This document shows, one piece after another, positions 1 to 6,838 of a stretch of DNA of 64,000 bases. A program made the position numbers and the translations under genes. The stretch lies in the IMG/VR virus record IMGVR_UViG_3300025161_000006, positions 1 through 64,000 of that record; one strand, written 5' to 3'. The DNA is from a virus. Each line of letters starts with the position of its first letter. Position 1 is the first letter of the stretch. The notes below the pieces were generated by a model that worked only from the letters and a program-made list of their open reading frames with translations, was not told the DNA's origin and ran no database searches.

Positions 1-53
1 AGACATAACCACTTTTTCATACTCTTTTCATGGTAGTAAATTTTTATATCCAT
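1..53 (-). CDS. N-terminal fragment of an unknown protein, cut by the window edge
   Basis: An ATG on the minus strand (54 bases from the edge) opens a frame that stays open to the end of the window, giving MDIKIYYHEKSMKKWLC. The start context ACTATGGA matches many other starts in this genome (AACTATGGAA and similar). It would be the first gene downstream of the hairpin array at 50-693, which would then form its 5' leader. With only 17 codons visible no function can be proposed, and the frame could be fortuitous. Confidence 0.35.
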   Translation of the reverse strand, partial: MDIKIYYHEKSMKKWLC

Positions 54-693
54 AGTCACCACAACTATGGTAAATATCGTCTAAGGCCGTGGTCACCCAA
101 TATCTCTTGGCCATAATCCTTATATCCGGCGCTACTGCCAGGACTATGGCCTATGTACTTCTCCCCAGGGATGGCGTGTAGGCAACTGGTTCAAGCCAAT
201 ACCAACACTTTCAGGGGGTGGAGTCTCAACTGAGTTGAGTTGAGTATATCCTGCCTAGCAGGATACTCCACCCCCTGAGTGGGGGAAGTTAAAAAAAACC
301 CATGCTGCCTGCAATAGGCAGCTTATTTACCTGGCCAAGGGTGTGGCCAGTGAGAGAGGGCTTACTTCCAGTAAGCCCTCAATTTATCCCTTATGATTCT
401 TAATTCATCATAAGGGATAAATGTCACTTCACGACCATCTTTGGTCGTGAAGCTGGCTATCTTGGGCACATAGCCCAAGATAGCCAAGCTCATCTCAGCC
501 ACCACAAGGTTGGTGGCTGAGAGAGCTGACAAGCTCTCGGGGGTTAACTCTTGCCCCCCTGAAGTAGCCTTCGCAGAGAAGGCTTCTTCAAAGAGGGCGG
601 GGTTGAGCCCCCCCCTAGGTCTTTGATTAGACATGAATGCCAATTTGCCAAAGTACACGGGGGGTTTGAGAGAGGTGGTCCACCCTCACAAAC
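50..693. repeat. Contiguous array of about 15 different hairpins (inverted repeats)
   Basis: Inverted repeats follow one another almost without gaps. Arms: 50-56/64-70; 109-115/145-151; 211-224/265-278 (14 bp, enclosing 225-239 and 248-254/258-264); 304-310/316-322; 331-337/344-350; 356-366/370-380 (11 bp); 382-396/408-422 (15 bp); 427-437/442-452 (11 bp); 454-467/473-486 (14 bp); 493-504/511-522 (12 bp); 521-527/532-538; 539-543/554-558; 560-572/578-590 with one mismatch; 588-602/608-626 with a bulge; 664-668/689-693. The stems are unrelated in sequence, so this is not one repeat copied many times. Base composition is visibly richer in G+C than the rest of the window. It lies between divergent gene blocks. 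It could be a structured leader RNA, or a cruciform/single-stranded element used in replication or packaging; the sequence alone does not decide. Confidence 0.9.
362..658 (-). CDS. Doubtful 98-aa ORF lying inside the hairpin array
   Basis: The frame starts at GTG (658) or, more plausibly, ATG at 634 (MSNQRPRGG...) and runs to TAA at 362. The C-terminal half reads like a protein (FTTKDGREVTFIPYDEL). However, every part of it is also an arm or loop of a hairpin, and the array continues outside the ORF in both directions, which suggests that structure rather than coding shaped the DNA. No Shine-Dalgarno or typical A-rich leader precedes either start. Composition differs from all other genes here. 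It could be a real small gene constrained to fold, or a chance open frame in G+C-richer sequence. No family is recognised. Confidence 0.35.
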   Translation of the reverse strand: MYFGKLAFMSNQRPRGGLNPALFEEAFSAKATSGGQELTPESLSALSATNLVVAEMSLAILGYVPKIASFTTKDGREVTFIPYDELRIIRDKLRAYWK

Positions 694-742: not shown

Positions 743-863
743 GGAAAAATTTTAAAAAAATTTTTAAGGTAGGTATGGGAGGGGGTAGGGAGAAATTTTG
801 GTATGAGGTATAATACAGGGAGGGGGTATAAGGAAAAATTTTATAAAAAATTTTTAAGGCAGG
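743..863. repeat. Two-copy direct repeat with A/T tracts and G-runs
   Basis: Copy one is 743-773 and copy two 832-863. Both have the form GGAAAAATTTT, an A-tract, then TTTTTAAGG(T/C)AGG, and differ by one inserted base and one substitution. Between them GGGAGGGGGTA occurs twice (777-787 and 818-828). The A/T part is itself nearly self-complementary. Confidence 0.75.
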
Positions 864-2353: not shown

Positions 2354-2534
2354 GATTTACTTGCAGAATGGAGAAAACCCTGCTGAAGTTATGCAACATC
2401 TCTATACAGCACTGGCATCTTCGGGGAAGCCTTTTACATTGAAGTTAGTGAGCCATCCATTAACTATTATTGTTGAAGAATATAAAAACTCTAATTTCAT
2501 ATGGTTGGAAGAAAAATCACTCAGTATGAATTAA
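2313..2534 (+). CDS. Hypothetical 73-aa protein
   Basis: This frame overlaps the 3' end of the helix-turn-helix gene by 41 bases and the start of the exonuclease gene by 34 bases. The central part alternates hydrophobic and polar residues (PFTLKLVSHPLTIIVEEYK), suggesting a small alpha/beta fold. It fills a gap that no other plus-strand frame covers, which is the main support. An in-frame start internal to the listed one cannot be excluded. No family recognised. Confidence 0.6.
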   Translation: MSSLLNFNVKITSKIYLQNGENPAEVMQHLYTALASSGKPFTLKLVSHPLTIIVEEYKNSNFIWLEEKSLSMN

Positions 2535-3439
2535 ACGGAACACCCGTATATACATATAATTCAATAAACGATGCGGCACAGACTATGGGTGTTAATGAAT
2601 CTACCATAAGAGCTGCAGTTAAGTATGGTAGACAATCCTGTGGATATCTCTGGAGAGCAGAGGAAGAAGCTAAGCCTAAAATCCTGTTCATTGATATAGA
2701 GACTGCACCAAATAAAGCTTATGTATGGAAGCTATGGAAAGAAAACATATGCACAGAGCAACTTATTGATGCATGGTTTATGCTGGCATTCTGTGCTAAA
2801 TGGAATGATGCTTCAAACTTTATTACTGCAGTACTATCTACAGAAGAAGTATTAAGAGAAGATGATTCAAGGATTATACAAAGATTACAGGCACTACTTG
2901 ACAAAGCTGATGTTGTTGTATCCTACAATGGAGATAAATTTGACTTACGACATATCAACACACGAATAGTCAAGTATGGTATAAGTAAACCAGCTCAGTA
3001 TAAGTCAGTTGATTTGATTAAGACAGCCAGACGTAAATTTGCCTTCCCGGGCAATAGTTTAAACGCTCTGGCTAATTATTTTAATATAGATGGCAAAATA
3101 CATGTAGACTTCTCTCTGTGGAAAAGATGTATGGAAGGAGATGCTTCTGCACTATCTGAGCTGGCTATATACAATAAGCGCGATGTACTCATTCTTGAAA
3201 AGCTGTATTATATACTAAGACCTTATGTGGTTGGGCATCACAATACAGGACTTTATGAAAACTATGATACTGAGTATGTATGTCCCTATTGTGGGAGTAC
3301 TCAGGTAACTTCCATTACAGATAAGCAATATACTACAGCAGCATATGCTTATGCTATGTTTAGATGCCAGAGTTGTGGTGCTATAAGCAGGTCAAGAAAT
3401 AATAGCTCAGGAAGGAAAGTAAAACTCTTACCACTATGA
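2501..3439 (+). CDS. NUMOD1 + DEDDy 3'-5' exonuclease + zinc ribbon fusion, 312 aa
   Basis: Three parts are visible. Residues about 5-52 match the NUMOD1 DNA-binding pattern (hydrophobic strand, SINDAAQTMGVNESTIRAAV helix pair, then GYLWR). Residues about 60-240 are a DnaQ/PolB-like exonuclease: D65 and E67 in FIDIET, D148 in SYNGDKFD, and Y224/D228 in YNKRD, i.e. the DEDDy set. Residues 261-292 are a zinc ribbon with CPYC and CQSC pairs. The expected activity is 3'-5' degradation of DNA ends or single strands in replication, repair or recombination. The gene ends in an ATGA overlap with the HU/IHF-like gene, so the two are co-translated. NUMOD1 is best known from homing endonucleases, so its fusion to an exonuclease is uncommon. 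Confidence 0.9.
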   Translation: MVGRKITQYELNGTPVYTYNSINDAAQTMGVNESTIRAAVKYGRQSCGYLWRAEEEAKPKILFIDIETAPNKAYVWKLWKENICTEQLIDAWFMLAFCAKWNDASNFITAVLSTEEVLREDDSRIIQRLQALLDKADVVVSYNGDKFDLRHINTRIVKYGISKPAQYKSVDLIKTARRKFAFPGNSLNALANYFNIDGKIHVDFSLWKRCMEGDASALSELAIYNKRDVLILEKLYYILRPYVVGHHNTGLYENYDTEYVCPYCGSTQVTSITDKQYTTAAYAYAMFRCQSCGAISRSRNNSSGRKVKLLPL

Positions 3440-4273: not shown

Positions 4274-4683
4274 TGACAAAAGTGTTTTATCATCATCTGG
4301 ATTTGTACAAGTTTTTATTTATTGTAGGTATTACATCTGAAGATTTCTTCGATAGTATATTTCATAAGTTGCATGTAGAACCTATTGATACATCTGATAT
4401 TGCAAGTGCTGTTACTGTGCGTGTGAGTATACCGGAAGGAGAGTATAATAGAAAGGCTATAGTGTGTGCCTTTTGCATATCAGACGTAATGAAGAATCCA
4501 CTTACTCCTGGTATTGTAGCACACGAAGCTTTTCATGCTGCTGCAGCTATATTTGATGATGTAGGTGAGCTTACTGTAAAGAAAGACTTTCAGGAACCTT
4601 GGGCTTATCTAATAGGCTATCTTGTTGAACTCATATATAAAGATATTGGTAAATATGTCAAAACTTGTAAAGATATCAGATGA
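4273..4683 (+). CDS. Small zincin-type metallopeptidase-like protein, 136 aa
   Basis: HEAFH at residues 84-88 is an HExxH zinc site, preceded by a hydrophobic segment (TPGIVAHEAFHAAAAIF), and E-P-W-A-Y downstream offers a possible third zinc ligand (Glu). Before it lies VRVSIPEGEYNRKAIVCAFC, plausible as the beta-sheet of a minimal zincin fold. The gene overlaps the terminase start by 29 bases and shares a base with the upstream gene, so it is embedded in the packaging operon. Head-maturation protease, or a processing enzyme for large virion proteins, are the obvious guesses; neither is shown by sequence. Confidence 0.8.
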   Translation: MTKVFYHHLDLYKFLFIVGITSEDFFDSIFHKLHVEPIDTSDIASAVTVRVSIPEGEYNRKAIVCAFCISDVMKNPLTPGIVAHEAFHAAAAIFDDVGELTVKKDFQEPWAYLIGYLVELIYKDIGKYVKTCKDIR

Positions 4684-6838
4684 TATCATTGTAGCAAAAC
4701 CCTGGTCTGAGTTTGGTGTTACAGACAATCCTGTAAGAAATACAGACCAGCAATATCTTAAGTTCATTAACCCTTATGTGTTTAATGAAGAGGCAAGGCA
4801 TTTCCTCAGGTATGGATATTATATAGATGCACCAAAAGGCACAAGAGATTATGATGAATACTGGGATGAACAGGAGAAGAGAATACTTGAAGGATATTCT
4901 GTTGGTGGAGTAAGAATACCAGGCAGATTATACTATTACCTTAACTTTGGTATGATTAAAGCACGCCCTGTTGACCCACTCACACATAAAGAGAGCAGTA
5001 CAAGGAAGATACTTACCTTTCCTAAATTCCTTGACCATATTTACTATCTTTCTAATGAAGTAGAAAAGTCCTTTGCAGAGGGTCCTTATATAGACATACC
5101 AAAGCAGGGTATGATAATAGCTAAATCCAGACGTAAGGGTATAACCTTCTTCACTGCTAATGGTATATTCAGTTATAACTTTAACTTCCTTCCCGCATCT
5201 AATAATATTCTTGCTGCTTATGAGAAGCAGCATTACAAGGCTACTCTTGATGCTATACACTTTACACTCAATCATGTAAATAAGCATACAGCTTTTGCCA
5301 AGAGAAGGGATAAGCTAGACAAGAGAGACCACTTCAGGGCAAGCTTTATCTATGTCAATGAAGAAGGTATTGAGATAGAAGAAGGATATATGAGTGAGAT
5401 ACAGGCCGTATCTTATAAGGATAATCCCTTCAAGAACATCGGTGAGTCTGTTGATGTGATAGGGGTTGAAGAAGCTGGTAGGTTCAGAGAATTACTTGAA
5501 GCCTATGCTATCTTTGAGCCTACTATACGTGATGGGGATATAATGACAGGAGTACCCTTTATCTATGGTACAGGTGGTGATATGGAAGATGGCACTCAGG
5601 ACTTTGCTGAGATGTTTTATAATCCTGCGCCTTATGGACTTAGAGCATATCAGAATATATATGATGAGAATGCTGTAGGAGATTGTGGTTGGTTCATAGA
5701 TGATATGTGGTATTATCCAGGTACTTATGTTAAGAAAGTAACTATCTCACTACCTGATGGAACAAAGCAAGAGAAGGAAGAGTTATATGAGGCTGTAGAT
5801 TTAGAAGGTAATAGTATAAGAGATATTGCAGAGAAGTTACTTGATGAAAAGGCAGAGTTAAGGAAGAAAACAAGCAGACAGGCATACCTTAAGTTCTTAA
5901 CTCAGCAGCCTAAGACTCCTGCACAGGCATTCTTGCGTATATCTGGTAATGTATTTGATGCGGCAAGATGTAATGCCAGGCTGGGAGAGATAATGGCTAA
6001 TCCTAATAAGTATCTGTCAAGTATCTATAGAGCTGCTCTTGAAATAGATGTATCTACGGGTGGAGTAAAGTTTACACATGATACTGTCAATCAACCTATT
6101 TATGACTTTCCTATCAGAGATAATAAGAACAAGCCAGGATGTATTGAGATATATGAACATCCTGTACTGGGACAAGATGGTAAGCCCATCTCTGGTAGAT
6201 ACATAGCAGGTATAGATAGCTATGATAAGGATGTATCCTCAACAGTATCACTTGGTTCATTGCTTGTCCTTGACACTTATACAGATAGGATTGTATGTCA
6301 CTACAAGGGCAGACCTCCTTCTAATGTATTCTATGAGAACTGCAGGAGAATACTTAAATATTATGGTGCTGTAGCTAACTATGAACGCTCTAACCTTGGT
6401 ATTTATACGTACTTCTACAATCATAACTCCCTGCACTTGTTAGCAGATGAACCTGAAATATTAAGTGAGAAAGGACTATCTACAGGCAATCTCATAGGTA
6501 ATAACAAGAAGGGTACTGCACCGAGTGAGAAGGTGAATGCTTTGGGAATAGAACTTGCTATGCACTGGCTATCCAGGCCAGCATATGGCTATGACCAGGA
6601 GAGTGAAGTAACAAACTATGATATACTTCGCTCTGTACCTTTACTTAAGGAGTTAGCTGCATGGAATGACAAAGGTAACTTCGATGACGTATCAGCACTT
6701 GGCATGTTGATGATATACAGAGAAGATAAGGTAAAGACCATAACCAAGCTTGTTAAGAATGTCAAGACTATAAGAGATGACCCCTTCTGGTCAAGGCATG
6801 TAGGTAAGGTTGTATATAGTCAATATGTTATAGATTAA
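4655..6838 (+). CDS. terL: Terminase large subunit (packaging ATPase/nuclease), 727 aa
   Basis: ATG at 4655 (MSKLVKISDD) is chosen over an in-frame start 33 bases upstream that would deepen the overlap. A Walker A-like loop is at residues 158-164 (SRRKGIT, the variant of terminases lacking GKS), Walker B at about 268-273 (VIGVEE, catalytic Glu next to the acidic residue), and the RNase H-like nuclease begins at about 518 (AGIDSYDKD, D521), with NYERSN and the late DVSALGM acidic residue following. It drives genome translocation into the prohead through the portal encoded next. Length and motif order agree with crAss-like terminases. Confidence 0.93.
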   Translation: MSKLVKISDDIIVAKPWSEFGVTDNPVRNTDQQYLKFINPYVFNEEARHFLRYGYYIDAPKGTRDYDEYWDEQEKRILEGYSVGGVRIPGRLYYYLNFGMIKARPVDPLTHKESSTRKILTFPKFLDHIYYLSNEVEKSFAEGPYIDIPKQGMIIAKSRRKGITFFTANGIFSYNFNFLPASNNILAAYEKQHYKATLDAIHFTLNHVNKHTAFAKRRDKLDKRDHFRASFIYVNEEGIEIEEGYMSEIQAVSYKDNPFKNIGESVDVIGVEEAGRFRELLEAYAIFEPTIRDGDIMTGVPFIYGTGGDMEDGTQDFAEMFYNPAPYGLRAYQNIYDENAVGDCGWFIDDMWYYPGTYVKKVTISLPDGTKQEKEELYEAVDLEGNSIRDIAEKLLDEKAELRKKTSRQAYLKFLTQQPKTPAQAFLRISGNVFDAARCNARLGEIMANPNKYLSSIYRAALEIDVSTGGVKFTHDTVNQPIYDFPIRDNKNKPGCIEIYEHPVLGQDGKPISGRYIAGIDSYDKDVSSTVSLGSLLVLDTYTDRIVCHYKGRPPSNVFYENCRRILKYYGAVANYERSNLGIYTYFYNHNSLHLLADEPEILSEKGLSTGNLIGNNKKGTAPSEKVNALGIELAMHWLSRPAYGYDQESEVTNYDILRSVPLLKELAAWNDKGNFDDVSALGMLMIYREDKVKTITKLVKNVKTIRDDPFWSRHVGKVVYSQYVID

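What the first reader, a model, noticed from the sequence alone, without database searches (positions are those of the whole stretch)
50..693. End-to-end array of about fifteen unrelated hairpins
At least fifteen inverted repeats, with perfect stems of up to 15 bp, follow each other almost without spacers, and the arm sequences differ from one another. This is far more self-complementarity than elsewhere in the window. It is neither a CRISPR array, a single repeated element nor a tRNA cluster. It lies between divergent blocks and in front of a probable minus-strand operon (start at 53), so it may be a ~600-nt structured leader RNA, a phage non-coding RNA, or a cruciform-forming replication/packaging element.
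Basis: seen in the sequence. Interest (0 to 1): 0.88.

Follow-up and report, generated by a model that had tools for sequence, protein, structure and literature searches.

The report
Phage gene written as chained hairpins
At the start of its early-gene block, a crAss-like phage carries a 640-base chain of back-to-back hairpins, and a 90-codon gene runs straight through half of it; close relatives show that both the base pairing and the protein reading frame are being kept, so one stretch of RNA appears to serve as structure and as message.

Summary
Positions 50-693 form a chain of about 15 almost abutting hairpins (perfect stem up to 16 bp), 110-119 kcal/mol more stable than shuffles and the most structured place in the 82-kb contig. 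Nothing comparable appears in nine reference crAss-like genomes or 33 further related loci.

Shuffling its synonymous codons destroys the fold (z -9.5). A diverged relative keeps the frame (dN/dS 0.24, one in-frame codon loss) and has 6 two-sided pair changes where 1.5 are expected. A near-identical relative differs at 9 sites in 13.4 kb: 5 lie in the ORF, and two of those are exact pairing partners.

The array sits at the divergent switch and GC-skew flip, at the head of the early block. A relative with 61%-identical terminase has a second, unrelated hairpin-laden first ORF there, followed by Pistol ribozymes; others carry Pistol, Hatchet or GOLLD RNAs nearby. The array itself matches no Rfam family.

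Best reading: an early phage RNA that is both structured RNA and mRNA. Transcription, translation and purpose are inferred. Mutation-driven origin (template switching) and a DNA-level role remain possible.

The parts
50..693 (-). Whole hairpin chain, read as RNA on the minus strand
   Evidence: Fold z -21.6; top structured cluster of the 82-kb contig; helix list
640..687 (-). 48-nt 5' leader block, identical in L004 and L005; contains most of the first hairpin (664-693, 3-nt loop) and the GGTGGACCACC palindrome (674-684)
   Evidence: Alignment; single copy in the window
612..662 (-). Second hairpin, with the ORF's ATG (634-632) in its apical part
362..634 (-). 90-codon ORF (MSNQRPRGGLNP...RAYWK, stop TAA 364-362) running through the hairpins
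   Evidence: synonymous-shuffle z -9.5; dN/dS 0.24 against L005
539..611 (-). Long interrupted hairpin, 27 bp, inside the ORF
487..527 (-). 17-bp hairpin inside the ORF; pair 515/500 swapped C-G to U-A in L005 with both changes synonymous
454..486 (-). 14-bp perfect hairpin inside the ORF; pairs 473/467 and 485/455 changed on both sides in L005
426..453 (-). 12-bp hairpin inside the ORF
382..422 (-). 16-bp perfect hairpin inside the ORF; 386 and 418 changed together (A-U to G-C) and 416 to a G.U in L004
356..380 (-). 11-bp hairpin that contains the ORF's stop codon
54..361 (-). Non-coding structured tail: hairpins 331-350 and 304-322, three-way junction 211-278, hairpins 176-208 and 109-151
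   Evidence: only L004 (identical here) covers it
50..70 (-). Last hairpin, containing the start codon (53-51) of the next minus-strand gene
1..53 (-). Start of the next gene, a small protein with a predicted membrane segment (continues in L004: MDIKIYYHEKSMKKWLYLYDITLILCAVFF...)

Best explanation
The array is an early phage RNA read from the minus strand, starting next to the divergent switch between the late (+) and early/replication (-) blocks. The RNA folds into a chain of abutting hairpins. Its 5' half is at the same time the coding sequence of a fast-evolving ~90-aa early protein; its 3' half is a non-coding structured tail that ends in a hairpin covering the start codon of the next gene. 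Shown: the fold, its dependence on synonymous codon choice, two-sided changes that keep pairs, and purifying selection on the frame. Inferred: transcription as part of the early operon (crAss-like early genes are attributed to a virion-carried RNA polymerase), translation of the ORF, and the purpose. The purpose I consider most likely is a compact, nuclease- and defence-resistant early transcript with slowed or gated translation.
For: Fold far beyond shuffles. Synonymous-codon shuffles lose the fold (-152.7 against -93.9 kcal/mol, z -9.5, 0 of 100); lowest of 549 coding stretches. L005: 6 two-sided pair changes against 1.5 expected, P 0.0016; two of them synonymous on both sides. L004: 386/418 exact partners among only 9 substitutions in 13.4 kb. 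Frame kept: dN/dS 0.24, P 0.0004, one in-frame codon loss, the other five frames contain stops. Position at the divergent switch and skew flip. A relative has a second hairpin-laden first ORF (z -8.1) followed by Pistol ribozymes; other relatives carry Pistol, Hatchet or GOLLD on the same strand of the region.
Against: Only two relatives, one of them a fragment with Ns; 12 pairs are broken in L005. Strand is not settled by single-sided changes. No RNA or protein data. No Rfam family and no homologue of the protein outside these contigs. The protective or gating role is a guess from the anatomy.
Confidence: 0.55

Rival explanations
1. Mutational by-product: template switching during DNA replication makes and repairs inverted repeats, so the hairpins and their matched changes arise without selection on RNA structure.
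For: The segment is a substitution hotspot (5 of 9 changes, P 4e-7; about 81% against 93-99% identity in the flanks). Template switching is documented to create and maintain hairpins (PMC8794818). Two-sided changes alone do not exclude it.
Against: L004 and L005 contain G.U pairs and broken pairs rather than copied perfect arms; loops are not inverted; the frame stays open with dN/dS 0.24. No other locus of the genome has such an array, though all is replicated alike.
Confidence: 0.15
2. DNA-level element: hairpins form in single-stranded or supercoiled DNA at the replication origin, at a packaging or ejection site, or as promoter hairpins for the virion RNA polymerase, as in coliphage N4.
For: Position at the GC-skew switch; neighbouring AT-rich palindromes at 745-765 and 834-855; first hairpin has a 3-nt loop and lies largely in a perfectly conserved 48-nt block upstream of the ORF.
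Against: Hairpins extend through the whole ORF and 300 nt beyond, whereas N4-type promoters need one short hairpin (own knowledge). No such array in 9 reference crAss-like genomes or in most relatives. Swaps that are synonymous on both sides fit an mRNA better.
Confidence: 0.13
3. Purely non-coding large structured RNA (a GOLLD- or ROOL-like phage RNA of a new family); the ORF is incidental.
For: Size (~640 nt), G+C of 50% against 37%, and relatives with GOLLD, Pistol and Hatchet in the same area. The left half has no ORF.
Against: Coding signal: 13 synonymous against 12 non-synonymous codon changes in the ORF frame, frame-preserving gap, dN/dS 0.24. Hairpins are simple and local, unlike the pseudoknotted GOLLD/ROOL folds. 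No Rfam match.
Confidence: 0.12

Closest known systems
GOLLD / ROOL large phage RNAs
   Same: Phage-encoded, 600-800 nt, highly structured; a GOLLD lies in the early region of relative L024
   Different: No Rfam match; chain of simple hairpins; half of it is coding; not in a tRNA cluster
Coding-region RNA structure of RNA viruses (ordered RNA structure, cis-acting elements in ORFs)
   Same: Protein and RNA fold encoded together, synonymous sites constrained by pairing
   Different: A dsDNA phage gene; density of perfect 11-16-bp hairpins end to end
Self-cleaving ribozymes of phages (Pistol, Hatchet)
   Same: Relatives carry them on the same strand, 0.2-1.5 kb downstream of the first early ORF
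   Different: None found in the array itself, even at E <= 10
N4 virion-RNA-polymerase hairpin promoters
   Same: Hairpin with a 3-nt loop just upstream of the first early gene of a phage group thought to inject its own RNA polymerase
   Different: 12-bp stem, one copy, and a chain of 14 more hairpins behind it
Template-switch-generated hairpins (PMC8794818)
   Same: Near-perfect inverted repeats that change in a correlated way; mutation hotspot
   Different: No copied patches or loop inversions seen; frame kept under selection

Membership tests
Crassvirales phage (context) | Terminase related to crAss-like phages | tested here: met
   TerL matches phrog_6681 (E 1.8e-112) and 157 records led by crAss-like phages at about 32% identity
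GOLLD RNA (RF02032) and other Rfam families | Covariance-model score at or above gathering | tested here: not met
   No family in window or array; best chance hits 10-23 bits, all far below their gathering scores
Pistol / Hatchet / other self-cleaving ribozymes | Conserved core recognised by the Rfam models | tested here: not met
   None in the array at E <= 10 or in the G000 genome for Pistol
CRISPR array | Regularly spaced direct repeats | tested here: not met
   Arms unrelated; no repeat family with regular spacing
tRNA cluster | tRNA genes | tested here: not met
   ARAGORN: none
Protein-coding gene | Open frame kept with excess of synonymous change | tested here: met
   dN/dS 0.24, P 0.0004, in-frame gap
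Protein-coding gene | Translation | not testable with these tools
   No ribosome or proteome data
Selected RNA secondary structure | Compensatory changes beyond chance | tested here: met
   6 against 1.5 expected in L005; 386/418 in L004; few sequences, simple null model
N4-type hairpin promoter | Short hairpin with 3-nt loop recurring upstream of early genes and used by the virion RNA polymerase | tested here: inconclusive
   3-nt-loop hairpin at 664-693, but the palindrome occurs once in the window; polymerase use not testable

The most novel reading that the evidence does not exclude
A new kind of dual-purpose phage RNA: an early gene whose coding sequence is built as an almost unbroken chain of hairpins continuing into a structured non-coding tail, with pairing and protein sequence co-evolving, and arising separately in different early genes at the same genome position in related phages.
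Probability: 0.42. Interest if true: 0.85.

Novelty: new variant of a known kind. Interest (0 to 1): 0.66.

Why it matters
A gene that must satisfy a protein and a dense RNA fold at once is rare outside RNA viruses. If the hairpin chain protects or times the first transcript of crAss-like phages, it would point to RNA-level conflict at the start of infection in an abundant group of gut phages, and it can be tested by recoding the gene synonymously. The relatives also show that the early switch region of this clade collects structured RNAs (Pistol, Hatchet, GOLLD).

Tried and rejected
Rfam, tRNA and repeat searches of the array: nothing. Homologues of the 90-aa protein: only L004 and L005 in IMG/VR; none in phage records, GTDB genomes, Pfam, PHROGs, PADLOC or PDB sequences. 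Single-sequence structure model (pLDDT 63) and fold search: no usable match. Search for the same array in 9 reference crAss-like genomes and 33 related loci: none; only L018 (scanned separately) has something similar; the L133 candidate is one terminator-like hairpin beside late genes. A strand call from single-sided changes failed: in L005, changes giving G.U on the minus strand and changes giving A.C there are balanced, about 6 to 6 by my count from the list. TROVE-protein partner idea: TROVE found in G005, G010 and crAss001 but not in G000, which is incomplete. Loop-inversion signature of template switching: looked for by eye in the aligned hairpins, not seen. Promoter and terminator scans: within about one standard deviation of shuffles. 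A first run of the synonymous test timed out. No further relatives of the L018 ORF to test covariation in the second array.

Full report
WHAT IS THERE. The window is the first 64 kb of an 82,059-bp IMG/VR virus record. Its large terminase matches PHROG 6681 (E 1.8e-112) and 157 phage records led by crAss-like phages at about 32% identity. Genes run on + from 1428 to about 53.7 kb (late block) and mostly on - from 53.7 kb to the end; GC skew is +0.14 and -0.13 in the two blocks. If the genome is circular (not shown), the array at 50-693 lies at the divergent switch, at the head of the minus block; near-identical contig L004 continues past window position 1 with further minus-strand genes.

Minus strand 40-720 folds at -338 kcal/mol against -219 for dinucleotide shuffles (z -21.6); plus strand z -18. 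Local folding gives 21 helices, 16 with at least 7 bp: 664-693, 612-662, 539-611 (27 bp with interruptions), 487-527 (17), 454-486 (14 perfect), 426-453 (12), 382-422 (16 perfect), 356-380 (11 perfect), 331-350, 304-322, a three-way junction at 211-278, 176-208, 109-151, 50-70. Many neighbours abut or are 1-4 nt apart. Arms are unrelated to each other. The array is 50.5% G+C against 36.7% for the window. After correction for composition it is the top structured cluster of the 82 kb (z -9.7, next -5.2).

AN ORF RUNS THROUGH IT. The minus strand holds a 90-codon ORF, ATG at 634, TAA at 364-362. The start codon falls in the apical part of the second hairpin, the stop in the 356-380 hairpin, and the next gene's ATG (53-51) in the last hairpin. 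Shuffling synonymous codons, which keeps the protein and codon usage, raises the MFE from -152.7 to -93.9 on average (z -9.5, 0 of 100). Among 549 coding stretches of this genome and G005 it is the lowest.

RELATIVES. Two contigs carry it. L004/L008 (3300007072_000086) differs from the window at 9 sites in 13.4 kb; 5 are in the ORF (binomial P 4e-7), of which 386 and 418 are exact partners in the 16-bp stem (A-U to G-C) and 416 makes a G.U on the minus strand. L005/L009 (3300002966_000143) ends inside the ORF; flanking genes are mostly 93-99% identical but the array only about 81%. In the ORF the differences by codon position are 10/9/19, with one in-frame codon missing; dN/dS 0.24, Fisher P 0.0004; the other five frames contain stops. 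Of 79 comparable pairs, 53 are unchanged, 6 changed on both sides, 8 on one side and 12 broken; 6 two-sided changes against 1.5 expected (P 0.0016). Two swaps, 473/467 and 515/500, are synonymous on both sides (GGC>GGG with GTG>GTC; GCC>GCT with GTG>GTA). Four of six ORF hairpins pair third positions with third positions, the register in which this is possible. A 48-nt block at 640-687 is unchanged in L005. Caveats: the null model is simple, L005 has Ns, assembly errors in a hairpin region cannot be excluded, and there are only two relatives.

A SECOND CASE. In L018 (101-kb contig, terminase 61% identical) the same place holds another hairpin-rich zone. A minus-strand ORF of 95 codons (4481-4765) runs through it, with synonymous-shuffle z -8.1. 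Its protein is unrelated in sequence to the window's but has relatives at 29-30% identity, likewise first on the minus strand, in L016 and L024, whose coding sequences are much less structured (z -2.6, -3.5), so in L018 the fold is laid over an existing protein family. About 190 nt downstream on the same strand lies a Pistol ribozyme and about 345 nt further a second one. L124 has two Pistols, L022 a Hatchet and L024 a GOLLD, all on the minus strand of the same region. Nine reference crAss-like genomes (about 0.89 Mb) and 33 further related loci show no comparable array.

HOW IT MOST LIKELY WORKS. In crAss-like phages early genes are read within minutes of infection; in phi14:2 this was attributed to a virion-borne RNA polymerase (PMC8375218, PMC10136315). 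The array would be at the front of that transcript (inferred). A chain of abutting hairpins can fold locally as it is made, leaving little single-stranded RNA for ribonucleases or RNA-targeting defence and slowing or gating translation; the last hairpin could hide the next start codon. Fold, pair maintenance and frame maintenance are shown; transcription, translation and the protective or gating role are inferred. The fast change of the segment fits either conflict with the host or hairpin-driven mutation.

ALTERNATIVES. Template switching can make and mend hairpins (PMC8794818) and may contribute; G.U intermediates, absence of loop inversion and the kept reading frame speak against it as the whole cause. 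A purely non-coding RNA conflicts with the coding signal. A DNA-level role fits the position but not the extent through the ORF. Single-sided changes in L005 do not settle the strand.

STATUS. No known RNA family fits. It works like the coding-region structure of RNA viruses and resembles large phage RNAs in size and setting, but is a member of none tested. Filed as a new variant of a known kind, with a real possibility of a new class of dual-purpose early phage RNA.

Noticed in passing
L018 4218-4290 (-) and 3874-3943 (-): Two Pistol ribozymes about 345 nt apart in the early region of a related crAss-like phage, above Rfam gathering (53.7 and 55.3 bits). Among 23 genomes or records only this one has Pistol.
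   Followed up: partly
L124 935-994 (-), 1662-1718 (-); L022 3705-3790 (-); L024 265-659 (-): Further structured RNAs on the same strand in the early region of relatives: two Pistols, a Hatchet and a GOLLD (242 bits).
   Followed up: partly
window 365-634 compared with L008 and L009: The ORF/array is a substitution hotspot: 5 of 9 differences in 13.4 kb fall in 270 bases; about 81% identity against 93-99% in flanking genes.
   Followed up: partly
window 745-765 and 834-855: Two copies of an AT-rich palindrome (AAAAATTTTAAAAAAATTTTT) 89 bases apart in the divergent intergenic region, recognisable also in L005, with G-rich stretches between: candidate origin or promoter elements.
   Followed up: no
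G004 (L042, L043, L046): A 99.8-kb crAss-like relative with more than 20 tRNA genes and a tmRNA match of 72 bits.
   Followed up: no
window 2501-3439 (+): DNA-polymerase-type exonuclease with a NUMOD1 domain at its N-terminus, as seen in homing endonucleases.
   Followed up: no
G005:C1:98519, 13580, 99596 (+) and 64228 (-): Other coding stretches in the L018 genome that fold far better than synonymous shuffles (z -6.3 to -7.6); the early block there may be more structured in general.
   Followed up: no
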